Assembly: GCF_000485595.1 (NCBI RefSeq)
Contig: NW_014577672.1
Span: 163,229 to 187,971, forward strand
DNA: 24,743 bases
Direction: 5' to 3'
From: Priapulus caudatus
Taxonomy: Eukaryota > Priapulida > Priapulimorpha > Priapulimorphida > Priapulidae
The notes beneath the pieces are model-generated. The model ran no database searches, had not been told where the DNA came from, and was given only the letters and a program-made list of their open reading frames with translations. The translations under genes were made by a program, and so were the position numbers. Of this stretch, positions 3,547 to 24,743 are shown one piece after another (within the stretch, counting starts at the first letter, position 1; the number at the start of each line of letters is the position of its first letter).

Positions 3547-4965
3547 GAGAGCGTGGCCAATTGGGCCCAGCCAGGCCCAGCGTCGATACTACGATCTAAT
3601 TACGTCGATAATACGATCTAAGTGCGTCTTTACCCCGATCTCATTGCGCTCAACAAGCTTTCACCACGCTCAACACCACGCCCGCATCACGCTTGCACTG
3701 CGCTCACTGCGTCTTTATTGCGATCAATCAGATCGGGGTAAAGACGCACTTAGATCCTCAACTGCGCGCCAGTCACGCTCCTAGTGCGACTTAACCACGC
3801 TCTAGGCAGGCGCCGACTGCGCTGGCAACGACCATATAAATACCGCGCCGCGTTCTAGACATCATCATTCGTTCTGCCGTGCTGTTCACATCAAGATTAT
3901 TTGCTACTGATTTTATACCCATAATAGTATAATAGTATGCTACAACTATGCCGCCAAAAGACTTCTATTTCTCCTCCTCATCCTCCTCAGCATGATGACA
4001 GCTTGGCAATCAAGTAATTCGAGTTGTTCCTCTACGAGAAACATGGCATGGAGTAGTGTTGCCTCATCCATAGTGGACACTGCATGGTGGGGTGGCCAGG
4101 GTAGCACCCCAATTTATACCCCAAGTTCGCAGGACGTGATCTGAGCGTAACTAACACGTAATGCGAACGCCACAACGGCGTGGTCTGAGCGTGTTGGGCG
4201 TAGTACAGTGATACTACAATCGTAGTACGAACGGGTCGAGCTTGCTAGAGACGCACCATGGTCATAGCGAGAGCGTGGTCAGGTCGCAGAGACATCTCCA
4301 TGGACGTAGTAACAGCGTGATGAAAACGTATTGACATCGTGCTGAGAACGGGGCGACAATTTTCACGCACCCGACACGCTGGCGATACGATCATTAAGTT
4401 CGTACTACGCTCGAGTTACGTGGGTACTACGCCTTCCACGTCTCTAATACGCCCGCACTGCGCTGTCTTTCCGCCACGCTCGCACCACGATTGTTTTGAA
4501 CATGTTTAAAGTTTGGCCACGCTCTCCACGCTCATGGGTTCCTCATGGTGACTGCACCGCGCTCGATCGCGATCGCAGTACGTCCATATACGTTCATACT
4601 GCGTTCTACACGTTTCCACCACGCTCTTAGAGCGTAGTACGAGCGTAGTGAGATCGGGGCCCTGGTGTGAATGGGGTATAACCTGGTACTATCTAATATG
4701 CCGGACCGTCCCTCGCCTACTCCACTAACGACTCTAGGGAGTCGCTTACGCCTACTCCCTAACCCTAACCATATCAAATAGTTACCAGCCTACCAGGGTA
4801 CGTTCCGGTATATCGAACCGTACCCAAGGTACGTTCCGGTATATCGAACCGTACCCAGGGTACGTTCCGGCAGTACCCTGGGGGACATAGACCCTATGAG
4901 CTCTACTAACTATATGGTGTACGCTAGCAGCAAAGATGTATCGGGAGGTGGAGGAGATGAAGGAC

Positions 4966-6886: not shown

Positions 6887-7038
6887 TTAAGCAAGAGATC
6901 CCTGGCAGCTTGATCCCATGCCTGACGTGCAGCCAAAGCAGTGGTTGTCCACTGCAACCGCGCAGCCCTTCAGGCTAGTCGCAGTGTCAATGTCCCAGAT
7001 TGTCGCTCCGTTCTTCTTTATAGACTCTGTGGCTCCCT
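6887..7038 (-). CDS. Exon 8 (last) of the ArsS-like gene
   Basis: This short exon was found by reading the minus strand downstream of exon 7. The acceptor CACCAACAG is followed by AG completing a Lys codon. It encodes ATIWDIDTATSLKG, then VDNHCFGCTSGMGSSCQGSL and a TAA stop at 6889-6887. Cys425, Cys433, Cys436 and Cys444 complete the family's C-terminal cysteine set, likely ligands of an auxiliary iron-sulphur cluster (inference). The ending SSCQG(S/A)LA matches the usual C-terminus of the family, so the gene is complete at this end. Confidence 0.9.
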
Positions 7039-10000
7039 CTGTTGGTGAAAATAATTATTAAATTAATTGTATGGCTTTTCTTGGGAATGTAACCTCGCCA
7101 GCTCTATTATTAGCTCTTCTTGGTATTCAATTCAAAACTTGTTAATGCATGGAAGATTTTTTAACAAAGCATTGTACCATACCCCCTCCACTAATCATTT
7201 CATTAAAACTGATAATAAACTCTATAGGGTAGGGGTTGTAATAAGCCATGAGATGCCACGGATATGGCTGCATGCTACAGGACACAGTTCTATGCCACAA
7301 GAGATGACTGACTGCACGTTACAAGACACCATTACACATTACAGGACACGACTGCACGCTACAATATGTAACTGCACGTTACAAGACACCGTTTTCATGC
7401 TTCAGGACAAGATTGCACGCTGCGACGCAGCCGCGCGTCAGACAGGGGGAGCCACTACTGCTTTGGAGCTTACTCAGTAAGAAGAGCGGCATGTCTAGCT
7501 GCTGGTTGAAGTCGCAGTCATAGATCTTGCCATTCCACGCGACGCTCAGTGTGTCTACACACATGAGGCTGTCCATCGTGTTTAGGTTGTAGTTGTTGGT
7601 AAGAAGCTGCATGTATTCCTCCATCTCTCCCCTATGAACAGAGCAAAGCGATGTTAGTTTACAATAAATCCATGTGATTAACCTGCTGGCATTATCGTAG
7701 ATTTATTTGCAGACTAATTTGCAGCTCTCTCTAAAAAAATCTCCCCATTAACAATAACATTATCTCTCAAACAGACCGGAAAATAAAAACATGTAGACAA
7801 ATTAGATCTCACCTATCAGTGGGCATATTACTGATTACTCTAGTGTAAAAATGACCACGTTTGTGCCGTTATGGTATATAAAACAGCATATGAAGGACAA
7901 CCTCGCACTTGCATTCTTGAGACTTTCAGAAATGATATCTAACAAGAGCCGCAGAGCATCTGGGCTCATCTGAGGTCTGTTGCTACGGTTATAAACGTAA
8001 CATTTAAGTCGTGCGTAGTGACACCTTTGTTAGGCACAGATATGCAGATACGCAGTTGCGTACACATCATTTCAGCAACCTTCTGCATTCTGCATACCTC
8101 CCAAATCCCATTGGTTGATACAAATCGTGTGCCTGAAACTCATGTTTTATGGTGCATTGTGACCCTAACCCTTACCCAAACCCTATTAAAAAAAAAAATT
8201 GTTGTAAATAAATCATGTAAATATTTGCATTAATTGGAAAAAAATAGTTAAATGGATAAAGATCTAAAAATACAGAAAACAGGTAAATAATAAAAAATCT
8301 GATGGAATTCCATCAAAGAACCTCTGAGCCGTAATCCTGTGCTGTAGCCGTTTGGGCTATCCAGGCTTATTGGCTTTCTAGATTATGGATGTGCCATGAA
8401 TATGAGAACACTGTGACATCATTGAGGCAGTTCAGGAATCCATGTTTAACCCTCCTCTTGAGCGTCAAAAGGTTATCAGACAGTTACTCTTCGCACGTCA
8501 GTGGAAAGCACATTTCATGGTCCTTTCAATAAAGTGATAAAAATGGTAGGTCAGCGCTGAAACAAAAAAGTTTTTCACTCTGTCCATTAGGCCATGTCTG
8601 ATATCTGACCTTTCCCCCACTGCCCTTTGACCTGTGACCTCCAATTTCGCACTGGTGATGGGTTTCCTGCCCATCACACTATACACCGAATATTAAGAGC
8701 ATAGGTCGAGCCGTTAAGATTTGTGCCCCCTCCGTTTACACATCTTGACCTTTGACCCTTGACCCCCCAAATTTGTCATCTCGAGTCCTTTTCACGATCC
8801 CTCCCGACGTCCTGAATATCGTGACCGTACGTCGAGCGGTTAAGATTTGTGCCCAACTGTTGACGCACGGACGGACGGACGGACGGACGGACGGACGGAC
8901 GGACAATCATGCGATTCTACAAGCTGCATCTGACTACGTCAGATGAGCCAAAAATGGTGCCACAAATACAAGTGCATATGATTCTTGGATATAAATTGTT
9001 CTAGACTGGTACGAAATCTCAACATTTAGACAGAAGTCACAAAGTGTAGAGTCAGGGTGACCGTCGATGAAATCTCGAGAGATGCAAGAATCATGTGCTA
9101 CTTATTAAATATCTTGACATATGTAAACAAATATATTTTGAAATGCAGACCGGTGCATATATTGACGAAATATATACACATAATGATGTACGTGTCTGTT
9201 CTAAAACATGTTATATTAGCCTCACTGTATACACTTGGTGTTAAGCAGAGTACCGAGAAGTATCCGAACGGTCCTGCAAATGTGAAAACAGTTAGGAAAA
9301 CATGAGAAATCATTACTTTGAATTTGAATACAAAAAATGCCTCTCTTACCGTCTGAACAGATGGTCAGCAAAACGCTTGATGGGCATGTTTGTGATCGTG
9401 AACAACTTATTGAACTCAATTCCAAATGTCTCCCACAGCTCCTCCTTGTACTTTTGCTCCAGTTCAGCTTGGGGTGGGGGCAAGTAAGCACCTGGTAAAC
9501 AGACGTAACACGAACAGTTTACCGAACAAATGCAGCAAGATTTGTATATACGCAGTATGCATGCTCTCCAACTTTTAATTGTCGTACAAGGTACGCAAAA
9601 TAATTTATGCACTAATTTGACTAATTAAACCACTGATACATAGCATCACGAATGCATGTATATTGACTAATCCACATTGTATCACTTGCACTTTAACACA
9701 TATATGATCAAGACAGCACGTAACTAGAGTACAGTACACTCTACTGAGAATAGAACAGTGCAAAACTGCTCTAATGCCTTTTCCAGCTTCCGAAGGGAGT
9801 ATAGCAAGTTGAACCTTCCGAAGACAGAACAGGCCGATCCGAAAACACCAGAACAGTGCTTTCCAAAAGCCGAACAGGCTGAAGCGACCACATCGCAGCC
9901 CTTCCTAGATAATCTTACCTAGAGGGTTGTAGACGAGATCCATCTCCAGTCCTGTTCCCTCCCTGCCGTAGCCGGCTGCGTTCAGCAGGTTCAGCGCCCG

Positions 10001-13000
10001 GATGCTCTTGTCAAAGACGCCGCTGCCGCGTTGCATGTTCACATTCTGTGCCGTGTAGCAGGGCAGTGAGGCAACGATGTGCGCTCGATGCTCCGCCAGG
10101 AAATCCACCAGGTCCTCTTGACCTACCGAGAACACAAGAGCAGCACTCTCACACATAAGAGCAACATTCTCAAACCGAAGCACGGCACTCTTAAACATAA
10201 AAGCAGCCTTCTGAAACACAAACCTGGCACTTGAACATAAGAGCCTTAATCTTAAACACAAAAGCAGCATTCTAAAACAAGAGCACAGCACTTTTAAACA
10301 CACGTGCGGTATTTTCAAACATAAGTACACCACTTTTAAACACTAACACAACAAGTTTTAAACACAAGTGCAATGGTCAAGTTTATAAGACATACAAGAT
10401 TTTTTTAAATGGGTAGCATTTTATATTTCCATGCGAGGGCAGGCTATACACATCCAAAACGTTTGGACCGAATGTAAGCACAATGGCGTTTATAAGGGTT
10501 TATTGAATCAGAGCATATGTCACAACTTTTCTGTTTGCCATAGCCAGTGAAATAAATCCATAACATAAACATAAGCAGAAGCAGTGGTAGTAGCAGCAGC
10601 AACAGTATCAACATCACTAGCAATAGCAGTAGCAGCAGCAGAAGTAGCATCAGTATCAGCAGTAGCAGTAACGCTGAAAGGGTCGTTGTCGTATCAGGTA
10701 GTACATATATGTACCCTAGGTACGTATATGTATACCAGACCTGTATCTTCTCAGCATATATGTACCCTGTGTTTAGGGTTAGGGTTAGGGTTAGGGTTAG
10801 GGTTAGGATACACTTCTGTAGTACAAGTCTGGTACACTTTGTGTATACATATATGTAGTACCTGATACGACAACGAACCCTTCAGCAGCAGTAACAACAC
10901 TAGCAGCAGCAGCAGCAGCAGCACCAACACCAGCAGCAGAAGTATAAGCAGTCATACCACTATAGCAGGAGGGGTTGACATCAAATGATGACATATATGC
11001 TCTGCAGTTCTGGTTTAACATTATCATGGCAGCAGCAGGGCAAGCTCACATTAACTGGTCAGGAGATAACTGAAATAAATATTAACACACGCTCCAGTTT
11101 GGCAATTTATCATTCCGATTGAACGCACCTGTGAAAACTCTTGCATCAAGTATAAATGATTAAGTTGTTCACGAAAGGGAGCGTAGTGGCTTGAACTTGT
11201 GCTGTGTACCATCAAAGCAGTCACGACACACGAAACAGTCTAGTCCTAGCTACTCCACTGCCTGCATCAGTGATGTCACATCCTAACTACCCACCTGTCT
11301 GCATCAGTGATGTCACGCTAGCTACCCACCTGTCTGCATCAGTGATGCTTAAAATCCCTCTCCAACTGCTTCTCATACAGTATGTCACATCTAGCTACCC
11401 ACCTGTCTGCATCAGGTGATGTCACATCCTAGACTACTACCTGTCTGCATCAGTGATTGTCCACGCCCTAAGCCTTTCCTGCATGCATCAGTGATGTCAC
11501 CCCTAGCCTATTCACCTGTCTCAATCAGTGATGTCACATCCTAGCTACCCACACGTCTCAATCCGTGATGTCACACACCTAGCTACCACTGTCCAAATCA
11601 GTGATGTCACATCCTAGCGACCGACCTGTCTGATCAGTGATGGTCACCCTAGCTCCAACCTGTCTGCCATCATGATGTCACCCCTAGCTACCTCACCTGT
11701 CGTGCACAGTGATGTCACACCCGACCACTGTCATGCCCATGCAGTGATTTCACACCTATCTACCGACTGTCTGTCAGTGGATGTCACACCTCAGCTACGA
11801 CGGTCTGCCATCAGTGATTGTCACACTAGCTCATTTCCGGTCTGCATCAGTATGTCACATCCTAGCTATCAGCTCGTCTGATCATGCATGTCACTCCTAG
11901 CTACCACCTGTCCAATCGTGAGTCACACTAAGCCTAACTCAGCTGTCTGCATCAGTGATGTCACATCCTAGCTCCCACCTGTCTGCCATCAGTGATGTAA
12001 ACCCTACTACCAACCTGTCTGCATCAGTGATGTCACATTCCTAGCTACCACCCATCTGCATCAGTATGTCACATCCTAGCTACCACCTTCGGCTCATGAT
12101 GTCACATCCTAGCTACTCACTGTCTTGCGCATCAGTATGTCACATCTGCTTACTCACCTGTCTTGCATACAGTGATGTCACATCCTAAGCTACTTAACCT
12201 GTCTGCATCAGTGATGTCACTGCCTAGCCTACCCACCGGTCTGATCGTGATGTCACATCCTATACCACTGTCCTGCTCGTGCATGTCCACACCTAGCTAC
12301 CACCTTGTCTGCATCAGTGATTCAACACCCTAGCTACTCACACTGCTCTGCATGTCAGTGATGTCAACACGCCTAGCTACCCACCTGTTCTGCATCATGA
12401 TTGTCACATCTAGTACCCACTGTCTGCATCAGTGATGTCACACCCTAGCTACCACCTGTCTGCATCAGATGATGTCACATCCTACTACCAGCCTGTCTGC
12501 ATCGTGATGTCAACCCTAGCTATCTCACTGTCTACAATCAGCGTCACATCTAGCTACCACCGTCTGCATCAGTGATGTCACATCCTGCTAGCCACCTGTC
12601 TGCCATCAGTGATGTACACATCACTAGCTACCACCTCGCATCAAGTGAGTCCACCCTAAGCTCATCACTGTCTGCCATCAGTGATGTCCACCTAGCTACC
12701 CACTGTCTGCATCAGTGATGTCACATCCTAGCTACTCACTGTATAGCAGTCAGTAATTCAAATCCTAGCTCCAACCGGTCTGCATCAGTGACTGCACACC
12801 TAGCTACCACCTGTACTGCATCAGTGATGTCACACCCTAGCCATACCCCACCTGATCTGCATCAGTGATGTCACACCCAGTATCACCTGTCTTGCATCAG
12901 TGATGTCACACCTAGCTACCTCACCTGTCTGCATCGTGATTACATCCTGTACCACTGTCTGTCAGTTGATGTCACACCCTAGCTACCCACCTGTCTGCAT

Positions 13001-16000
13001 CAGCTATGTCACCATCCTAGGCTAACCATCCTGTCTGCATCGTGATGTCACCCCTAGCTACTCACCTGTCTCAAATCAGTGATGTCAAATCTAGCCTACT
13101 CACCTGTCTGCATCAGTGATGTCCATCCTAGCTAACCACCCCTTCTGCCATCGTGATGTCAATCCTACTAACCGACCACTGTCTCATCAGTCCTGTCACA
13201 TCCTAGCTACCCACCGTCTCAATCACTAAGCATGTCATCTCCCAGCTACTCACATGTTGCATCAGTGATGTCACACCTAAAGCCTACTACCTGTCTCAAT
13301 CAGTGATGTCACACCCTAGCCTACTCACCTGCCTGCTATCAGATGATGTCACACTGCTACTCTACCTGCACCTGCATCAGGAGACCTTCAACACCTGCTA
13401 CTCACTGCTGCATCGCTATGTCACACCCTAGCTACTCACCTGTCTGCATCAGTGATGTCCACCACTAGCTACGTCACCTGTCTACAATCAGTGATGTCAC
13501 ACCTAGCTACTCACTCTGCCTGCATCAGTGAGGTCACACCCTAGCTACTCAACCCTTTTCTGCATCGCATGATGTCAACCCTAGCACCTCCCTGCCTGCT
13601 CAGTTATGTCACACGCTGCTATCACCCTTTCTGCAATCAGTGAGTCACACCCTAGCTACCCCACCTGTCTGCCATTCAAAGTTATGTCACACACCTAGCT
13701 ACCACCTGTCTGCATCAGTTGATGTCACACACCTAGCTACCCACCTGTCTGCATCAGTGATGCTACAGCTAGTATTTCACCTGTCTGCTCAGTTATGGTA
13801 CATCCTAGCTAACACCTGTCTGCCCATCAAGACGTCACATTCATAGCATATTCACTGTCTGCCATCAGTGATTGTCACACCATGCTGACCCACCTGTCTG
13901 ACCATCAGTGATGTACATCCTATATTACCTGTCCATGCATCAGTTGATGTAAATCCTAGCTACCCACCTGTCTGCATCAGTGATGTCAACATCCGTAGCT
14001 ACTCACCGTCTGCATTCAGTGATGTACACATTCACTACTACCCACCTGTCTTGCATCAGGATGCTCACACCCAGCTACTCACTGTCTCATCGTGATGTCA
14101 CATCTAGCTACCCCTGTCTGCCATCAGTGATGTTCACATCTAGCTACTCACCTGTCTGCATCAGCTTATGTCACACCCTAGCTACCCACCTGTCCTGCCT
14201 CACTGATGTCACCCTAGCTACCACCATGTCTCAATCAGTGATGTCACACCCAGTATCACCTGTCTACATCCACTGATAGTACCATCCTAGCTACTCACCT
14301 GTCCTCATCAAGTATTGTCACATCTTAGCGTCTCACCTGTCGCATCAGTGATGCTCACATCCTAGCTACCCACCGTCTGCATCCAGTAATGTCAACCCTA
14401 GCTATTCACTGTTCTCAAGCGAGTGATGTCACTCCTAGTCCCTACCTGTCTAAGACCTACAGTGGCATTCACACCCTAGCTAACTCACCTGTTGCATCCA
14501 GTCTGTCATCAATCCTAGCTACTCACCTGTTCTGGCATCAGTGATTCACATCCTAAGCTACTCACCTGTCTGCCCATCACTGATGTCACATCTTACTATC
14601 ACCTGTCTTAATCAGTGATGTACATCCTAGCTACTACACCTGTCCTGCTCAGTGCTGGTCACCAATTCCTAGCTACTTCACCTGTCTGCATCAGTGATGA
14701 TCACATCCTAGCTACCCACCTGTCTGCAAATCAGTGAGTCACCTACCTAGCTATTCAACCTGTCTCAATCAGTTGAGTCACTCCTTAGCTGATCCGATCC
14801 TGTCTGCATCAGTGATGTCACACCCTAGCTACTCACCTGTCTGCATCAGTGATGTCACCTTCTAGCTCCCACTGTCTGCCATCAGTGATGTCACAACCCT
14901 TAGCTATTTCACCTGATCTCATCAGTTGATGTCACTCCTAGCTACCCACACTGTCTAGCAATCAGTAGATGTCCATACCTCAGCTACGAACCTGTCGGCA
15001 TCGTGACGTCACACCTAGCTACTCACCTGTCTCAATCAGTGATGTCAACACCCAGCTTACCACCTGTTCTGCCCATAGTGATGTCACACCCTAAGACACC
15101 ACCTCGTCTGCCATCATGATGTCACCCCTAAGCTTACTCAACCTGTCTGCCTCCTAGTTGATTCACCCACTACCCACCTGTCTGCATCGAGTGATGTCCA
15201 CACATAGCTATTCACTGTCATGCATCAGTGATGTCACATTTAGCTCACTCATTGTCGACATCAGTGATGTCACATCTTATCTATCACCTGTCTTATCAGT
15301 GATGTCCCATCCTAGGCTAACCCACCTGTCTGCTCGTGATGTCACTCGACGACTACGACCTGTCTGCAATCAGTGAGTCACACCCTAGCCTATTCCACCT
15401 GTCATCAATCAGTATGTCACCCCTAGTTCCCCTGTCTGCCAATTATGATGTCAACCTTAGCTCCCACTGTCTAGCATCATGATGTCACACCCTAAGCTAT
15501 CACCTGTCTTGCCATCAGTGATTGTCACACCTAGCTACCCACCTTCTGATCAGCTGATGTCACACCCTCAGCTATTCACCTTCTGCATCAGTGGATGCTC
15601 ACATAGTACTTATCCTGTCACTGCATCAGTCATGTCCACCTAGCATACCGACCTGTGGATTCAGTGATGTCACACCCTAGCTACACACCTGTCTGCATTC
15701 GTGATGTCACCCCTAGCTTACCGACTGTCTGCCTCAGATGATGTCACTCCAGGTACTCACCTGTCTCAATCATGATGTCACACCCTAGCTACTCACTGTC
15801 TGCATCAGTGATGCCACACCCTATGCTCCGACCTGTCTTATCACTGATGTCACACCCTAGCTAACCCACCTGTCATGCATACATTGCTGTCACACCTAGC
15901 TACTCACCTGTCTGCCATCAGTCGAGTCCCACCTCTAGCTAACCCCACGTCTGCATCATCTGCTGCTCCACCCGAGACTACTCTCACCTGTCTAATCGTG

Positions 16001-19000
16001 ATGTCACACCCTAGCTACTCACCTTAGTCTGCATCCAGTGCTTCACACCCTACGCTACTCACCTGCTGCAATCAAGTGATGTCACACACCTAGCTACTAC
16101 CTGTCTCATCGAGTTGATTGTACACCCCTAGCTAGCCGGACGCTGTCTGCGACATGATGTTTATTTTCTCACAACGCTAGTCTCACCTGCCATAATCATT
16201 GCATGTCACTACTAGCTACCCACCTGTTCAATCAGGTGATGTCACATCCTAGCTACTACCTGCCTACATCACCATGTACACGACTGCTAAGCTACTCCCT
16301 GCTCTAGCAGCTGCTTCAGGTCACCACTGTCGATAAATCTTTCAGCATCGGGCACTCCACCTATGCGTGCTTCCGACCGCGACGGCTGACAAATTCCCGG
16401 AGCACAGTCGGGAAGCGCACCTTATACATGATGCATCATAGAATATACCGCATGTGCCAACTATGCCAAGTTTCATAAACTACCAAATACAGTAACTAAA
16501 GCTTAGATATTTTTTGAATAGCAACGAAATTATCTGGTTGCCTATTTTTTAATTTACTATGAATACTTAGTAATTTAAATAATAAATTATTTTATTATTT
16601 TATTTTATTATTTATTATCATGCTACTGCTTACTTTTTTCCATTTTCAGGCGAGTGTAATAAAATATTAATAATAAATATTTTTATTCAATTCTGTTACA
16701 TGTATATTTTTATTTTGGTTTGTTTACCAGTGATGTTCCAGCGATATTAAAGTCAGTGGCCGTTCTTAAGCACAACATATGGCATCTCAGTCCGCTGGGC
16801 TCTCTGTTCTTCATCTCTTTGCGCTCTGTGAGCGATTCGACATGGCATATGGCTTGCAGCCCTGGTTAGCTAAATTGCCTCTTGTTCAGCTGCAGGATCT
16901 CACCTTGCCTTTTCTCACCATTTTTCACCGGCTCAGTTCAACAGAACAAGCCAAAACGACACACTGCAACTCGCCGACTTGTGCACCAGCCAGAAACAAG
17001 AATGGTCACACAACCTCTGTGAAATCAGAAATGAAATAAAAGTGTCAATGACCGACTGTAGCTCACCACAAAAAGGAACACAATGAGTGAGTGAAAAGAA
17101 GTCAAGTTTTAATTGGAGCAGCCCACATCGACTATCATTATGAACGAACAGTGATATTGGGTGAACTCCTATATATACTCTTGATAATTATAGTGTAATT
17201 TTTTTATAGATGAAAATATAAAATAATATTATATAAAATTATAAATAATTTATAAGACCAAATGAATCCAAATTTGAATGTAGATGCGCTATACCCGCTT
17301 GATGTTCTTAGCCAATAGATCATTATATTCATAATATAATATATAATAATATATAATATTAATATGTTCATATCAGGAAATTTTGCATTAAAGATATTGT
17401 CAATGAAATCTTGTAAAACGAACCAGACGAGTGTGACACCACAGACTGTTTGTTATCTGTGTTTATATAATATGATATATAATTGCCAAACGCTACATAA
17501 TTTGCATAATTTTTTAAATATCAAAAGCCTTATACCTTATTCATTCACATACCAAAAATGAGCAAAATCCGGTGAACCTACCCTGACTAATGGAAATTCC
17601 CATTTTTGCCAAAAAATTTCCGTGGCTCGAAAGTACGTCGACTGGCGTGCAAAAGGTCGTTTAATATGGGAGCATAGCAGTAACAACTATACCCAATTTC
17701 AAACATGTGGGACAAACGGTTCCTGAGTTATCGTTGACCGTAGCCAAATGTTGACAGACGGATGGACGTACGACGGACGACGACCCATGGCAATAGCTTG
17801 ACGATGTCAAGGTAAGCTAAAAACAATCTATAACTGTATGTGTGCGTGCATATGTGTGCATGCAAATGCGTGCGTGCATTCACGCATATGTGTCTGCATG
17901 TGTGTTCATGTGTGCGCATGTATGTGTGCGTGCATGTCATATCATGACTTAAATTATATGGTATACTCATAACGATGATGCATATGGACATCATACGATG
18001 ATATACCTATAACAAGTTGTTACATATTGTGCACACTTGCATAGACATGTTCACGACGATATACAAACCTGCTTCGATCCCTGCCTTTTTCTTCTCAGCG
18101 GTCCATAAGGAAAGGAAGTTGGGTACACCGAGGTTATCCAACGCCCGCTGTCGTTTCTTCCTCTCCTCTCTCGTGAGCTTCTTCTGACCAAGTTTCTTAA
18201 GGTTTTCTGCTGTTATCTTAAACTCTTCATCCTTCTCCATGTTCTCCAGTGTCTCGGGAATGAGCGAACCCTGCGCATATCAATGCGTGAGGGATACACA
18301 TGAGACAAGATCAACGACAGATGCAAGCTATCACTGCCTCCTCTGTTCGAGTCAATATTTCTCATATTTACAATTTTCTGGGACACGCAGGGCTGTAACC
18401 AGAAGATTTAAAAGAACCAAGCACATTTCTTAGGGAAACGTTGAGGAAACTTCTTTTTAACACCTATTCACCTAATATGTTTATGTTAAGATTTCTAACT
18501 TTGGCTAAAGAACACATGCTAAATATCAATTATGCAACTTGATAACCACTCTACATTGAACCTGAAGCATTCAAAATGTTTAGAATTGAGCTGTTTTTAA
18601 TATAAAAAAAACTGCGTTTTTTAAAATTCCTTTGTATGCTTATACCCCTGTCACACCTACCCGCGATCACGCTAGCACTCCCACTGCGACCTGAAAAATA
18701 TGAAAGCGTGAGGAAAAGCGTAGTACGGTCTCTGAGAACGATTTGGTGACGCAGTGGAAACTGTCAAGGACAGAAGAGGGTCACCATGAGCTACCTTGAG
18801 CGCCAAACCTCGGCGGTTGTTTTGTGCATGCTCAAAACAAGCACAGCGGGTCGGCGCTCTGACGAGAGCGGTGTAATGATGCAGTACAGTCGCCATGGCA
18901 GCGCAAAGCAAACTACATGAGCGTAGCGTGTACGTAGCAACAACGCATAGGACGCAGTAAGAGCGTAATAAGTGAATCAAGAGCGTACTGTAAGCTACAC

Positions 19001-19531
19001 ATTTTCAAAGTCTGGGAGCGCAAAGCGGTCGCTGGCTGATCGCGGTAGGTGTGACAGGGGTATTAGTTTCACAAGTTTGCCGCCTGAGAGAATTACCTCT
19101 CACTTATATCTCACACAAGTTATATCTCACACTTATATCTCACACAAGACACAACTAAGATTACATATTACATTTACATTTCGCAATTGCACACATGCAT
19201 TCGGAAAAGAAACAAATATTCATCTACTCTACAACCCCAGCCTTATGAAATATTAAAAGCTCCGGGGCCCTATTATCGTTTAGGTGCCATTATACCACGT
19301 GTAAGCGAGTAAGTTACTACCTTGCTGATGACTATATTGAGGTACCTTGGTTCTCTCTGCCAATCCCTCGAGTCCCACCCATGCACGCTCAGTTGGGCCT
19401 CGGTCAGGTCGTTTCAGTTTGTGCTTGTGAATATTCACGTCAGTTTTGAAGTCCGGTAGATCAGGACGGTACCAGCGCGAGGCTATCAGCGGCCGACAAG
19501 CCCTCGCTCCCCTGCTGCTGATGCATAGCAT
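6887..19531 (-). CDS. ArsS-like radical SAM/Cys-rich protein, eight coding exons (whole-gene entry)
   Basis: I assembled this gene by joining 19531-19346, 18270-18069, exon 3, exon 4, 10122-9919, 9491-9350, 7631-7474 and 7038-6887. Clean exon 3 and 4 sequence comes from 24601-24410 and 24107-23994. Phases match at all seven junctions, giving 449 residues. Visible features are an N-terminal Arg/Ser-rich presequence, CX3CX2C (C150, C154, C157) for the 4Fe-4S cluster that cleaves S-adenosylmethionine, the family signature DITGGAPEL (191-199), DRCNLT, SLPCYTAQN, DLVYNPLG, TNMPIKRF, DCDFNQQL, and a C-terminal NHCFGCTSGMGSSCQG. The family (with a DUF3641-type C-terminal domain) includes ArsS, which in bacteria attaches the 5'-deoxyadenosyl group to dimethylarsenite during arsenosugar synthesis. 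The family call is strong; arsenic chemistry and mitochondrial location here are inferred. The ~130-residue N-terminal extension exceeds bacterial members. Confidence 0.88.
7258..7440. repeat. ~21-22-bp degenerate repeat in intron 7, near the exon 7 donor
   Basis: About eight units related to CTGCACGTTACAAGACACCA run through the intron between exons 7 and 8. The array ends some 35 bp from the exon 7 donor at 7473. An open frame on the plus strand (7067-7480) runs over it and is an accident of the repeat. Confidence 0.75.
7474..7631 (-). CDS. Exon 7 of the ArsS-like gene
   Basis: The acceptor is GTTCATAG|GGGAGAG and the donor CTGA|GTAAGC; 158 nt. It encodes GEMEEYMQLL, SLMCVDTLSVAWNGKIYDCD and FNQQLDMPL (residues 348-399). 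Cys371 and Cys386 are the first two of six C-terminal cysteines. The DCDFNQQL block is near-invariant in this family. A degenerate ~21-bp tandem repeat starts soon after the donor. Confidence 0.93.
8560..8904. repeat. Interspersed repeat with DR1 motifs and CGGA-microsatellite tail
   Basis: An internal direct repeat is visible: GTCGAGCCGTTAAGATTTGT at 8705 and GTCGAGCGGTTAAGATTTGT at 8831. The 3' end is a clean GGAC/CGGA array (8867-8904). Two nuclear-receptor type direct repeats lie inside (8628-8640 and 8746-8758). Layout with a microsatellite tail suggests a short retroelement or satellite-tailed MITE; I cannot decide. Confidence 0.6.
8628..8640. promoter_or_regulatory. DR1-type nuclear-receptor motif
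   Basis: TGACCT G TGACCT is a perfect direct repeat with one-base spacing, the arrangement bound by RXR, COUP-TF or HNF4-type dimers. A second near-perfect site, TGACCTTTGACCC, is at 8746-8758. Both are inside an interspersed repeat within intron 6, so function is only a possibility. Confidence 0.35.
9350..9491 (-). CDS. Exon 6 of the ArsS-like gene
   Basis: The acceptor is TTTACCAG|GTGCTT and the donor CG|GTAAGA; 142 nt, entering in phase 1 and leaving in phase 2. It encodes AYLPPPQAELEQKYKEELW and FNKLFTITNMPIKRFADHLF (residues 301-346). The LPPPQ and TNMPIKRF blocks are characteristic of the family, after the barrel and before the Cys-rich C-terminal part. Confidence 0.93.
9730..9900. repeat. 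Weak ~22-bp repeats next to the exon 5 donor
   Basis: Degenerate copies around CTTCCGAAGACAGAACAGGC recur about every 20-24 bp between the exon 5 donor (9918) and 9730. Similarity is loose and the copy number is about six. It is listed because it mirrors the clearer array on the other side of exon 5. Confidence 0.45.
9919..10122 (-). CDS. Exon 5 of the ArsS-like gene
   Basis: The acceptor is TTCTCGGTAG|GTCAAG and the donor CTAG|GTAAGA; 204 nt, phase 1 at both ends. It encodes QEDLVDFLAEH, then ASLPCYTAQNVNMQRGSGVF, then YGREGTGLEMDLVYNPL, the conserved middle of the ArsS-type radical SAM barrel (residues 233-299). The first codon completes the Gly of LEPG from exon 4. Degenerate 21-22-bp tandem repeats lie on both sides within about 20 bp of its splice sites. 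Confidence 0.92.
10124..10375. repeat. 21-bp tandem array abutting the exon 5 acceptor
   Basis: About twelve degenerate units of 21 bp, plus-strand consensus near YTCTTAAACACAAGAGCAGC. In sense orientation the units are pyrimidine-rich and end in AG (for example GCTCTTGTTTTAG, GCTTTTGTGTTTAAG). The unit nearest the exon, GCTCTTGTGTTCTCGGTAG, is the functional polypyrimidine tract and acceptor. Period and unit boundaries were judged by eye. Confidence 0.8.
10572..10663. repeat. AGC/AGT trinucleotide microsatellite, left part
   Basis: Imperfect AGCAGT and AGCAGC triplets run into the target duplication of the foldback element and continue beyond it at 10887-10945. They create poly-Leu, poly-Ala or poly-Val-Ala open frames on both strands that are not genes. 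Confidence 0.9.
10673..10886. mobile_element. Foldback element with telomere-like core and 9-bp target duplication
   Basis: Inverted arms start GCTGAAAGGGTCGTTGTCGT and continue through ATCAGGTAGTACATATATG; the right arm mirrors this at about 10840-10886. The core at 10769-10806 is about six TTAGGG units. Perfect 9-bp direct repeats AGCAGTAAC flank it (10664-10672 and 10887-10895). The element sits in a CAG/AGC microsatellite within intron 4, so a chance match of the flanks is possible but the exact ends make insertion likely. Confidence 0.75.
10887..10945. repeat. AGC trinucleotide microsatellite, right part
   Basis: This continues the microsatellite split by the foldback insertion, with up to about seven AGC units in a row near 10904-10923. 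Confidence 0.9.
10946..11244. other. Unassigned intron 4 sequence
   Basis: Unique-looking sequence lies between the CAG microsatellite and the 37-bp array. I checked the minus strand for an ArsS-type exon and found none; exon 4 is at the far end of the array. Confidence 0.5.
11245..16299 (-). repeat. Splice-donor-derived 37-bp minisatellite, long noisy copy (intron 4)
   Basis: This is a head-to-tail array of roughly 135 units (length divided by 37). The plus-strand consensus reads CTAGCTACTCACCTGTCTGC followed by ATCAGTGATGTCACATC. On the gene's sense strand each unit contains CAG|GTGAGTAGC, identical to the exon 4 donor; a common variant reads CAG|GTGGGTAGC. Units differ by many one-base indels, probably from uncorrected long reads. 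The array fills most of the intron between exons 4 and 5. Confidence 0.95.
16300..16421 (-). CDS. Exon 4 of the ArsS-like gene, indel-disrupted copy
   Basis: This corresponds to the clean exon at 23994-24107 (114 nt there, about 122 here because of extra bases). The acceptor side (TATAAG followed by GTGCGC, for GTGGCGC in the clean copy) and the end at GCTAGAGC next to the minisatellite are visible, but the frame is broken several times. It is the exon from whose 3' end the adjacent repeat array derives. Coordinates are approximate because of the noise. Confidence 0.75.
16430..16727 (-). other. Intron 3 (A-copy), AT-rich
   Basis: A short AT-rich intron with TTATTTTATTATTTATTATC-type runs lies between exons 3 and 4. 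The corresponding intron in the second copy is 24108-24409 and has an ATT microsatellite at about 24268-24297. Both start GTAAA and end with TATAG (clean copy). Confidence 0.7.
16728..16929 (-). CDS. Exon 3 of the ArsS-like gene, indel-disrupted copy
   Basis: This is the collinear copy of the radical SAM motif exon. Aligned by eye with the clean copy at 24410-24601, it carries many one-base insertions and losses that break the frame, while the Cys-motif region, donor (CACTG|GTAAAC) and flanking intron remain recognisable. The indel-rich pattern resembles uncorrected single-molecule long reads more than a decayed pseudogene, where substitutions would dominate. Ends are approximate on the acceptor side. 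Confidence 0.8.
17580..17800. repeat. Interspersed repeat fragment with GACGGA tail
   Basis: This stretch of intron 2 holds a repeat-like sequence ending in TTGACAGACGGATGGACG and ACGACGGACGACG. Similar tetranucleotide GGAC tails end the repeat at 8560-8904, although the bodies differ. It lies inside the block missing from the second gene copy. Confidence 0.4.
17826..17945. repeat. Alternating purine-pyrimidine tract (TGTG/TGCA/CATG)
   Basis: Long runs of TGTGTGCGTGCATATGTGTG type dominate here and begin again at 24694 in the duplicate block. The alternating purine-pyrimidine composition can adopt Z-DNA. The minus-strand open frame over it (17728-17994) is low-complexity and not a gene. Confidence 0.8.
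18069..18270 (-). CDS. Exon 2 of the ArsS-like gene
   Basis: The acceptor GCGCAG lies at the high-coordinate end and the donor GCAG|GTTTGTA at the low end; 67 codons plus one base, ending in phase 1. The encoded stretch is highly charged (LTREERKKRQRALDNLGVP) and predicted helical, and reads as the linker leading into the radical SAM domain. Its last base G joins GA of exon 3 to form Gly130. An alternative in-frame Met is at 18240, but the frame stays open to the acceptor. Confidence 0.8.
18271..19345 (-). other. Intron 1 of the ArsS-like gene
   Basis: The intron runs from donor GTACCT to acceptor GCGCAG, phase 0. It contains the 420-bp Harbinger-like MITE (18643-19062) and, at 19085-19150, short repeats of TATCTCACACAAGT. 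I see no further exon. Confidence 0.6.
18643..19062. mobile_element. Harbinger-like MITE with TTA target duplication
   Basis: Terminal inverted repeats of about 26 bp start TACCCCTGTCACACCTACC at the left and mirror at the right end, with a one-base difference. The flanks are TTA (18640-18642) and TTA (19063-19065), the 3-bp TWA duplication typical of PIF/Harbinger elements. The 420-bp interior has no transposase but many short motifs such as GCGTAGTA and AGCGTAAT. It lies in intron 1. Confidence 0.75.
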
Positions 19532-20620: not shown

Positions 20621-20696
20621 ATACACGTGCCATATATATGCAATATAATCTGTCGCCTGGAGTTGCTAGCGTGTCACTGGTGTTATACTTAGGCTG

Positions 20697-20935
20697 CGAG
20701 GGTCTATGTCCCCCAGGGTACTGCCGGAACGTACCCTGGTACCAGAGCATATAAATCAATGTGATTTACATGCTCTGCTGGTACTATCTAATATGCCGGA
20801 CCGTACCTCGAAGCGCCTACTCCACTAACGAGTCTAGGGAGTCGCCTACACCTACTCCCTAACCCTATAACCCTAACCATATCAGATAGTTACCAGGGTA
20901 CGTTCCGGCTGTACCCTGGGGGACATAGACCCTAT
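20697..20935. mobile_element. Foldback element copy 2 with telomere-like core
   Basis: The arms start GAGGGTCTATGTCCCCCAGG and run through GGTACTGCCGGAACGTACC, mirrored at 20890-20930. The centre has CTACTCCCTAACCCTATAAC and CCTAACC, the complement of TTAGGG units. A small palindrome (AGAGCAT ... ATGCTCT, 20743-20777) is inserted in the left arm relative to the other copies. The target duplication is not clean. Confidence 0.75.
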
Positions 20936-21010
20936 GAGCTATACGCACCTAGCTTCCAATGCTGTGTCACTGCCGTTAAATAAACACGGTTATTACTAGA
21001 GCCGGTCTTA

Positions 21011-21355
21011 AACAAGCACTTGGAGCGTTTCAATAAAATATAATGCTAAATAAATACGAAATCTATTTACTACCAAAGTCTTAATGTTTCTATAGGTACT
21101 CTCTTTCACCTATTATTGCCGACAATTTTCTGTAAATCCCGTCCAAATGCTCATGTGCAACAAACGCTGGCGGCCGCCATTGCTCACGCTGCAACCAGCA
21201 TTGTTGCACATGAGCATTTGGACAGCATTTACAGGAAATTGTCGGCAATAATAGGTGAAAGAGAGTATAGAAACATTAAGACTTTGGTAGTAAATTAAAA
21301 TAGATTTCGTATTTATTTAGCATTATATTTTATTGAAACGCTCCAAGTGCCTGTG
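21011..21355. mobile_element. 345-bp foldback with 8-bp target duplication (hAT-type)
   Basis: Nearly perfect 160-bp arms (21011-21170 and 21195-21355) surround a 24-bp GC-rich loop containing GCGGCCGC. The ends include GCACTTGGAGCG and its inverse. Exact 8-bp repeats CGGTCTTA flank it (21003-21010 and 21356-21363), the length made by hAT transposases. The transcript of the element would fold into one long hairpin. Confidence 0.85.
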
Positions 21356-21363
21356 CGGTCTTA

Positions 21364-21730
21364 GGTCGGATTGCGATTGAATCCGTCTAAAGGCCCGTCT
21401 CCACACACGCAGCGCGGTACAAAACGCCACGGAAACGGCGCCGTTCACCACTACCGGCAAAGTTCAAATATATTAAATCTTATGGCGCAGTCTCCACTGA
21501 CACGGCACGGTGCCAGCCCAATTTCACGGCGATGGCAAAAGTCAAATATGAGTTTGACTTTTGCCGGATGCCGTGTATGCAGAAAGACAGTTGAACCAAT
21601 CAACGCGATTGTTTTTTCTCACGTGTTCTGCTCACGCCACCATCAGCCAATGGACAACAAGCACATGCATAAGTTCTGATCACTGAACCAGAGTGAACAC
21701 AATGCGCTCAGATACAATTCGCGGCGCAAA
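21364..21730. other. Probable degraded MITE sequence
   Basis: AAAGGCCCGTCTCCACACAC at 21390 resembles the AAGGCCCATTCACACC terminus at 2497. A perfect 13-bp hairpin GGCAAAAGTCAAA / TTTGACTTTTGCC lies at 21534-21565. The 102-residue plus-strand frame (21371-21679) has no recognisable domain. Confidence 0.4.
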
Positions 21731-22135
21731 CACACTTTCCTACCGGCCATAGCAGCGCCTGTATAAGCCTATGGGCATTACCGCTCGTGAATAATAGCTA
21801 ATTAATTAGACTAATCGTGCGTCAATAAACTCAAAACTCACAGGGATTATGGCTAAGACATGTGTCTACATGCATGTAGAATTCTAGAAACGTAACTCAA
21901 ATCGTTCGCAAGATATGATAGTTAAATACACTTTCCTACCGGCCACAGCAGCGCCTGTATAAGCCTATGGGCATTACCGCACGTGAATAATAGCTAATTA
22001 ATTAGACTACTCGTGTGTCAATAAACTCGAAACTGACAGGGATTATGGCCAAGACATGTGTCTACATGCATGTAGAATTCTACAATTATAACTCAGATAT
22101 GAAAGTTAAATACACTTTCTTACCGGCCATAGCGT
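21731..22135. repeat. ~190-bp tandem duplication, two copies plus a partial third
   Basis: The block beginning ACACTTTCCTACCGGCCA recurs at 21732, 21928 and 22112 (spacing 196 and 184). Copies share AGCAGCGCCTGTATAAGCCT, ATGGGCATTACCGC and GGGATTATGGC segments. The same start block occurs inverted near 22573-22590. Confidence 0.85.
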
Positions 22136-22696: not shown

Positions 22697-23275
22697 CATA
22701 GGGTCTATAGCTGCGTTCACACGTATACACGGCCTAGCTGGTATCGTACTTAGTTGGTGCTAAGTTCGGTTAAAATGCGTTCACACGAGATACACGAGAT
22801 TCGAGGCTTAGCTAGCTAGGTATAATATAGACTGGTAACCGGTCGACAGTTCCACGCGCTACACTAACGTCGTGCAGCGAACGGGTAGCAGTCTAGGTTA
22901 GCGCGCTACAGTTTCGCAATTCGAATTTCAAACAATACGCGGCCAGCGTGGTGCCGAATATATGCGGCTTAGTTGGCGCGGAATATGATTCCGCGCTAAG
23001 CAAGCCGGAGCAATCACGGCTAAGCAAGCGTGTGAACTCTTAAATACGGAACTAAAATCCTCGTGTGAACGCAGCTTATGTCACCCAGGGTACTGCCGGA
23101 ACGTACCCTGGTAACTATCTGATATGGTTAGGGTTAGGGTTAGGGTTAGGGTTAGGGAGTAGTCGTAGGCAACTCCCTAGACTCGTTAGTGGAGTAGGCA
23201 AGGTACGGGCGGGCATATTAGATAGTACCAGGGTACGTTCCGGCAGTAACCTGGGGGACATAGACCCTCTCAGCG
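22697..23275. mobile_element. Foldback element copy 3, interrupted by a MITE
   Basis: The left terminus (CATAGGGTCTAT, 22697-22708) is separated from the rest (TATGTCACCCAGGGTACTGC from 23077) by the 368-bp MITE. The core 23125-23157 has about five TTAGGG units next to GGAGTAGTCGTAGGCAACTC, also seen inverted in copies 1 and 2. The right arm ends GGGGGACATAGACCCTCTCA. Confidence 0.8.
22709..23076. mobile_element. 368-bp MITE with AGCTGCGTTCACACG termini
   Basis: AGCTGCGTTCACACG at 22709-22723 is mirrored at 23062-23076. TAT occurs on both sides (22706-22708 and 23077-23079), and removing the element plus one TAT restores the foldback terminus GGGTCTATGTC. Internal GCGTTCACACGAGAT repeats the end motif. 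It is non-coding. Confidence 0.8.
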
Positions 23276-23347
23276 TTACGCTGTTAGTGTTACTAGAGCT
23301 ACGCGTGAACATGCACGATATGGCACAAGTACACTTTCCCACGGGTC

Positions 23348-23682: not shown

Positions 23683-23683
23683 A

Positions 23684-23993
23684 CCCTAGCTACTCACCTG
23701 TCTCAATCAGTGATGTCACATCCTAGCTACTCACCTGTCTGCATCAGTGATGTCACATCCTAGCTACTCACCTGCCTACATCACTGATGTCACATGCTAG
23801 CTACTCACCTGCCTACATCACTGATGTCACATGCTAGCTACTCACCTGGCTCTAGCAGTGATGTCACATCCTAGCTACTCACCTGCCTACATCACTGATG
23901 TCACATGCTAGCTACTCACCTGGCTCTAGCAGTGATGTCACATCCTAGCTAATCACCTGCCTACATCACTGATGTCACACGCTAGCTACTCAC
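23684..23993 (-). repeat. Splice-donor-derived 37-bp minisatellite, clean copy
   Basis: About eight well-formed units of 37 bp run from just after the 'n' at 23682 to the exon 4 donor. Two unit types alternate near the exon: GCCTACATCACTG and GGCTCTAGCAGTG. The second equals the last exon bases (CACTGCTAGAGCC on the sense strand). Units farthest from the exon carry TCTGCATCAGTG, the type that dominates the long array. Regular spacing here argues that the indels in 11245-16299 are technical. Confidence 0.95.
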
Positions 23994-24107
23994 CTGGCTC
24001 TAGCAGTGCTGTCAGGTTACACCTGTCGATAATCTTCAGATCGGGACTCCACTTGCGTGCTTCCGACACGAGGTGACGAAATTCGGAGCACAGCTCGGGA
24101 GCGCCAC
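23994..24107 (-). CDS. Clean second copy of exon 4
   Basis: The acceptor is CATGTATAG|GTGGCG and the donor GAGCCAG|GTGAGT; 114 nt, open. It encodes GAPELCSEFRHLVSEARK and KIIDRCNLTALLEP. It supplies the GGAPEL and DRCNLT motifs that join exon 3 to exon 5 in frame. The 37-bp minisatellite begins directly at its donor, and its last ~20 nt are repeated in the array. Confidence 0.9.
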
Positions 24108-24409
24108 CTATACATGATGCACGATAGAATATACCAGCATTGCCATCTACGCAAAGTTTCATAAAACTACAATACAGTAATAAATGCTTAGATATTTTTG
24201 AATAGCAACGAAATTAGCTGTCGCTATTTTTTAATTTACTATGAAATAATAGTAATTAAAATAATAAAATTATAATTATTATTATTATTATTATTATGGC
24301 TACTGTTATTTTTTTCCATTTCAGCCATTTCAGGGGTGAATAAAAAGTCGAATAAAAATCTTTTTATTCACTCCTGTTAACATTATATTTATTATTTTGG
24401 TTTTTTTAC

Positions 24410-24601
24410 CAGTGATGTCCAGCGTATTAAAGTCAGGGCTGTTTTTAAGCACAACAAGGCATCTGTCCGTGGTCTCTCTGTTCATCATCTCTTTGCGCTT
24501 GGGTGAGGATTCGACATGGCAATGGTTGCACGCCTGGTTGCAGTAAATGCCTATGTTCAGCTGCAGGATCTCCACCTTGCTCTTTCTCAGCCATTTTTCT
24601 C
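24410..24601 (-). CDS. Clean second copy of exon 3 (radical SAM CX3CX2C exon)
   Basis: The acceptor is GTGACTACAG and the donor CACTG|GTAAAA; exactly 192 nt, phase 1 at both ends. It encodes WLRKSKVEILQLNIG, IYCNQACNHCHVESSPKRKE and LVVLKNSPDFNTLDIT. The three cysteines of CNQACNHC ligate the radical SAM 4Fe-4S cluster. The frame is intact, unlike the copy at 16728-16929. Its position upstream (in gene sense) of exons 1 and 2 is wrong for one linear gene, so this block is either a misplaced duplicate contig or a partial gene duplication. Confidence 0.9.
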
Positions 24602-24743
24602 CTGTAGTCACAGACGGAAAACGACACACTGAACTCACCGACTTGGTGCACAGCCAGAGCAGTGTCACACCTCTGTGAATCAGAAAAACAATCTATAACT
24701 GTATGTGTGCGTGCGTGCATATGTGTGCATGCAAATGCTTGCG

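What the first reader, a model, noticed from the sequence alone, without database searches (positions are those of the whole stretch)
11245..16421. A minisatellite grown out of an exon's 5' splice site
Seen: the 37-bp unit contains, on the gene's strand, ACTGCTAGAGCCAG|GTGAGTAGC-type sequence (clean copy 23684-23993), which is the last bases of exon 4 plus its donor. Units nearest the exon are identical to the exon end; distant units drift to GATGCAGACAG|GTGAGTAGC. The array starts exactly at the functional donor. The simplest reading is that an exon-intron boundary was amplified in tandem about 135 times, filling a ~6-kb intron. I know of no described family of this kind.
Basis: seen in the sequence. 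Interest (0 to 1): 0.9.

Follow-up and report, generated by a model that had tools for sequence, protein, structure and literature searches.

The report
Minisatellite grown from a splice boundary
In the marine worm Priapulus caudatus, a 37-letter piece of DNA spanning the end of one exon and the start of its intron appears to have been copied about 135 times in a row, filling most of that intron; it is a clear example of something already described in two human genes.

Summary
Window 11244-16298 is a tandem array of about 135 units of 37 bp. It lies on the minus strand in intron 4 of an ArsS-like radical-SAM gene of Priapulus caudatus and begins at the exon-4 donor. Each of the four unit types seen matches the last 21 nt of exon 4 in register (15 to 20 of 21), followed by GTGAGTAGC or GTGGGTAGC. 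At the far end the array stops about 14 nt into a unit's intronic half, as duplication of a boundary-spanning segment predicts. The exon end is conserved in homologues, so the exon came first. The unit was found only on this contig of the 385-Mb assembly.

Corrections. Most unit 'drift' is of the size of the read error. Exon-like units occur only in the clean copy (2 of 8, alternating with another type), in none of 135 in-place units. The clean copy (23683-24743) sits at the contig end behind a single N, out of gene order: a duplicate or allele of the same boundary.

'No described family' is wrong: the human ABCA7 intron-18 VNTR has the same anatomy (25-bp unit, first GT is the exon donor, up to about 427 units), and IFI6/6-16 is a second case. 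New member of a known kind.

The parts
11244..16298 (-). 37-bp minisatellite array in intron 4, about 135 units, raw long-read quality; gene-strand unit GTGAGTAGCTAGGATGTGACATCACTGATGCAGACAG
11244..11258 (-). last partial unit: only the intronic half of the unit (about 14 nt, with read errors), then unique intron sequence
   Evidence: sequence shown
16299..16420 (-). exon 4, in-place copy of raw-read quality, frame broken by indels relative to the clean copy
16730..16925 (-). exon 3 (radical-SAM CxxxCxxC exon), in-place raw-read copy, approximate limits
18069..18270 (-). exon 2 (GSLIPETLENMEKDEEF...)
19346..19531 (-). exon 1, coding part from the first likely ATG
9919..10122 (-). exon 5, downstream partner of intron 4 (GQEDLVDFLAEH...)
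9350..9491 (-). exon 6
7474..7631 (-). exon 7
6887..7038 (-). exon 8 with the stop codon
23682..23682 (.). single N: join in front of the clean duplicate block
23683..23993 (-). clean copy of the donor-proximal array: 8 full units in the order M, E, M, E, M, M, D, d, plus a partial
23994..24107 (-). clean copy of exon 4, ending ...CTGACAGCACTGCTAGAGCCAG before GTGAGTAGC
24410..24601 (-). clean copy of exon 3

Best explanation
A 37-bp segment made of about the last 21 nt of exon 4 and the first 14-16 nt of intron 4 of an ArsS-like gene of Priapulus caudatus was duplicated in tandem. It then expanded by slippage or unequal exchange to about 135 copies, which now make up about 82% of a 6.2-kb intron (noisy coordinates). 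Splicing should use the first, exon-borne donor: any later donor adds 37n nt and brings an in-frame TAG almost at once (LEPGE*), so later units are decoys or yield transcripts marked for decay. Shown: anatomy, register, phase of both ends, conservation of the exon end, no other hit in the assembly, the stop on read-through. Inferred: the copying process, first-donor use, decay.
For: The array begins at the donor. Each of four unit types matches the exon end best in register; E 20/21, p about 1.5e-11; D 16/21, p about 1.2e-6 under a simple 25%-per-base model; with the terminal CAG left out E 17, d 14, D 13 and M 12 of 18. The array ends after the intronic half-unit, as a boundary-spanning duplication predicts. 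The exon end is old: of the 120 listed homologues (best of 7998 scored), 107 have NLTxxxEPG, 11 have NLTxxxEP with another last residue, one first match was elsewhere in its protein (NLTSLIPET) and one lacks NLT. The E unit in the exon frame reads LTSLLEPG, as in the paralogue P0001, while this gene's own exon reads LTALLEPG; this suits descent from an older state of the exon, though both residues are common (S 17 and A 25 of 119). Unit pattern with up to 3 mismatches: 25 hits, all in this window, against 3 for the reversed control pattern. DNA search: 23 matches, all in this contig.
Against: The bulk unit D matches the exon at only 16/21. No exon-like unit was seen in the in-place array (0 of 135). 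The order of units differs between the clean and in-place copies, unresolved. The paralogue's intron could not be fetched (search tool unreachable), so the pre-array state is not seen directly. No reads or transcripts were available. Both genome searches are heuristic (one search scored 2 candidate regions) and see only the assembly.
Confidence: 0.85

Rival explanations
1. An unrelated satellite or mobile element with a 37-bp core landed beside exon 4 and its first unit was taken over as the donor; the likeness to the exon is chance or later conversion.
For: Many invertebrate mobile elements carry internal tandem repeats (recalled). Foldback elements are common in this window.
Against: No other hit in 385 Mb. 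Likeness to the exon of 15 to 20 of 21 in register, in codons conserved among homologues. Both array ends fall at the phase expected for boundary duplication.
Confidence: 0.06
2. The array is an assembly or read artefact and the true locus holds few or no repeats.
For: The in-place stretch is raw-read quality, and a second clean copy sits behind an N at the contig end.
Against: An error-rich and a clean stretch both show the same 37-bp repeat abutting the same exon. A raw read is unlikely to invent 135 ordered copies (inference). Copy number and unit order remain uncertain.
Confidence: 0.05
3. Splicing uses many donors of the array, as a length-dependent control of ArsS output (as VNTR length tracks exon skipping in ABCA7). 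This is an addition to the best explanation rather than its opposite.
For: Donor-like sequence is retained: CAGGTGAG 19 and CAGGTGGG 18 exact copies in the 135 joined noisy units. Precedents in ABCA7 and IFI6.
Against: Retention of donors may follow from copying alone. Every later donor gives a stop almost at once. In ABCA7 retention of a unit did not vary with length; only exon-19 skipping did. No transcripts were available.
Confidence: 0.15

Closest known systems
ABCA7 intron-18 VNTR, human (PMC5954066, 2018, passages read; first author De Roeck is recalled)
   Same: Minisatellite immediately flanking an exon and including its splice donor; the first GT of the repeat is the donor; about 12 to 427 units; retention of one unit shifts the frame and gives a stop.
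   Different: 25-bp unit in a region called C-rich. Here 37 bp, about 135 units, with about 21 nt of coding exon sequence recognisable in the unit (whether ABCA7 units hold exon sequence I did not see); another gene and phylum; no data on polymorphism or splicing.
IFI6 (6-16) minisatellite, human (Turri et al. 1995; only the cited title and a statement in PMC4526556 seen; original not held)
   Same: Tandem repeat that provides several splice donors at an exon end.
   Different: Short repeat (12 bp, 26 copies: recalled). Use of repeat donors is reported there; not testable here.

Membership tests
Splice-donor-anchored intronic VNTR (ABCA7 type) | Array begins with the exon's own donor GT | tested here: met
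Splice-donor-anchored intronic VNTR (ABCA7 type) | Short tandem unit repeated head to tail within the intron | tested here: met
   37 bp, about 135 units
Splice-donor-anchored intronic VNTR (ABCA7 type) | Copy number varies between alleles | tested here: inconclusive
   Clean and in-place copies differ in unit order, but allele versus assembly artefact is not resolved
Splice-donor-anchored intronic VNTR (ABCA7 type) | Unit retention or length-dependent exon skipping | not testable with these tools
   No transcripts; only the predicted stop on read-through
IFI6-type multi-donor minisatellite | Repeat at an exon end in which each unit carries a donor | tested here: met
IFI6-type multi-donor minisatellite | Several repeat donors are used in mRNA | not testable with these tools
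   No transcript data
Dispersed satellite or mobile-element core repeat | Copies at unrelated loci in the genome | tested here: not met
   Hits only on this contig in 385 Mb; both searches are heuristic and see only the assembly
ArsS-like radical SAM protein (host gene) | TIGR04167 above its cut-off | tested here: met
   P0002 416.6 bits against a cut-off of 300; PF04055 and PF12345

The most novel reading that the evidence does not exclude
Boundary-spanning tandem duplication is a recurrent route, across animal phyla, by which introns grow. At this locus it is still active: the exon-like units of the clean copy are freshly made from the exon, alleles differ in unit order, and array length tunes ArsS output through competing donors.
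Probability: 0.15. Interest if true: 0.6.

Novelty: new member of a known kind. Interest (0 to 1): 0.38.

Why it matters
It shows that a splice-donor-anchored minisatellite, a kind that my searches met only in two human genes, also exists in a distant animal phylum, with its exon origin readable from coding sequence. It offers a natural test of how the spliceosome chooses the first of about 135 near-identical donors, and of whether such arrays are a general route of intron growth.

Tried and rejected
Rejected: a distance gradient in exon likeness. Not shown: a distance gradient at unit base 4. Exact GTGAGT (25 units) and GTGGGT (23 units), 48 of 135 kept units, do not differ in position (Mann-Whitney p = 0.32); against this, the MAFFT blocks are G-rich at base 4 in the two far blocks (16 G to 5 A, 18 to 4), but one-base deletions make those counts ambiguous. 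A gradient at unit base 14 (A far, G near; 17 and 18 exact units, 35 of 135, p = 6e-4) looks real and is unexplained. A hairpin as driver: of three unit dimers folded as DNA only M folds clearly better than shuffles (z -2.48; D +0.81, E -1.07). Clean block as a second locus: rejected, since it lies upstream of exon 1, behind an N, at the contig end, and holds the exons 3 and 4 that the gene needs between exon 2 and exon 5. Papers looked at for precedents, passages only: chicken MUC2 is unrelated; Sparus MSTN-2 has one or two copies of a 150-bp block at the 5' end of intron 1, not clearly spanning the donor in the passages seen.

Could not do: read the paralogue LOC106805372 (P0001) and its intron at the same place, because the genome search for it did not complete.

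Full report
What it is. The window is the last 24.7 kb of a 187,971-base contig. The organism is inferred to be Priapulus caudatus: the protein search returned LOC106812134 (partial) at 99% identity over 80% of the query, on a contig of exactly that length, and a paralogue LOC106805372 at 88% over 98%. The gene runs on the minus strand and encodes an ArsS-like radical-SAM protein (TIGR04167, 416.6 bits against a cut-off of 300; PF04055 and PF12345). Exons 1 and 2 lie at 19531-19346 and 18270-18069, exons 5 to 8 at 10122-9919, 9491-9350, 7631-7474 and 7038-6887. Exons 3 and 4 are present twice: in place (about 16925-16730 and 16420-16299) in raw-read quality, and clean at the contig end (24601-24410 and 24107-23994).

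The two copies. The in-place copy differs from the clean one over 673 clean bases by 4.0% mismatch, 10.8% insertion and 4.8% deletion, an insertion-heavy pattern typical of uncorrected long reads (recalled). The clean block follows a single N (23682), ends with the contig, and lies upstream of exon 1, so it is out of gene order. It is best read as a misplaced duplicate or second allele of the same stretch. The in-place copy also holds about 790 bases (17032-17819) that the clean block lacks, which hints at two alleles. The NCBI model P0002 takes its first exons from the clean block.

The array. From the exon-4 donor to 11244 there are about 135 units of 37 bp (138 segments by cyclic alignment; 135 kept of 141 segments, four of the six dropped being exon 4). 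Against one template the array shows 89.3% match, 4.2% mismatch, 6.5% deletion and 6.8% insertion, close to the read error in the flank, so the true units are probably near-identical. Block consensus is the same along the array apart from bases 4 and 14 and a one-base length wobble. Variation that looks real is at unit base 4 (A or G; GTGAGT or GTGGGT) and base 14 (A or G).

Link to the exon. The unit is 16 nt beginning GTGAGTAGC plus 21 nt of exon-like sequence. Matches to the last 21 nt of exon 4: E 20, d 17, D 16, M 15; with the terminal CAG left out 17, 14, 13 and 12 of 18; each best at the true register among 37 offsets. E occurs in 2 of 8 clean units and 0 of 135 kept in-place units, M in 4 of 8 and 5 of 135. 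The array ends at 11244 after about 14 nt of a unit, its intronic half, and runs into unique intron. That is the end expected if a segment [exon 21 + intron 14-16] was duplicated in tandem. The exon end codes for NLTxxxEPG in 107 of the 120 listed homologues, so it was not built from the repeat. The E unit reads LTSLLEPG in the exon frame, as in the paralogue, where this exon now reads LTALLEPG.

Elsewhere in the genome. A unit pattern with up to 3 mismatches gave 25 hits, all in this window, against 3 for the reversed control pattern. A DNA search gave 23 matches, all in this contig. The assembly has 385 Mb; both searches are heuristic and cover only what is assembled.

How it should work. 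Use of the exon-borne donor gives the normal protein. Any later donor adds 37n nt and a TAG two codons after the split glycine codon, so later units are decoys or produce transcripts for decay. This step is inferred; no RNA was available.

What is known. PMC5954066 (2018, passages read) describes the ABCA7 VNTR: 25-bp unit including the exon-18 donor, first GT equal to the donor, 298 to 10,678 bp, retention of one unit with frameshift, exon-19 skipping rising with length while unit retention did not. IFI6/6-16 (Turri et al. 1995) is cited in the four papers; I saw the title in their reference lists and one statement on repeat units used as donors (PMC4526556). The statement that no such kind is described is therefore wrong. 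None of my nine answered literature searches listed a report of this array, but only named Priapulus, neither with minisatellites, and the library holds open papers only.

Verdict. A genuine boundary-derived minisatellite; new member of a known kind; exon gradient not confirmed; the decisive comparison with the paralogue's intron was not obtained.

Noticed in passing
2418-2496, 4679-4908, 20693-20940, 23077-23290: Family of foldback (MITE-like) elements with palindromic ends around CCAGGGTACGTTCCGG; some carry telomere-like TAACCC/TTAGGG runs inside (for example 23126-23157).
   Followed up: no
10673-10886: Foldback of 41-bp arms enclosing TTAGGG x5.8 (10773-10807), an interstitial telomere-like run inside a hairpin element.
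   Followed up: no
17032-17819: About 790 bases present in the in-place copy but missing from the clean block: probable insertion allele or mobile element.
   Followed up: no
21728-22082: 196-bp tandem duplication at 94%, beside two long palindromes at 21012-21354.
   Followed up: no
11244-16298: Unit base 14 shows A far from the exon and G near it (17 and 18 exact units of 135, p = 6e-4): a domain structure within the array that no explanation here accounts for.
   Followed up: partly
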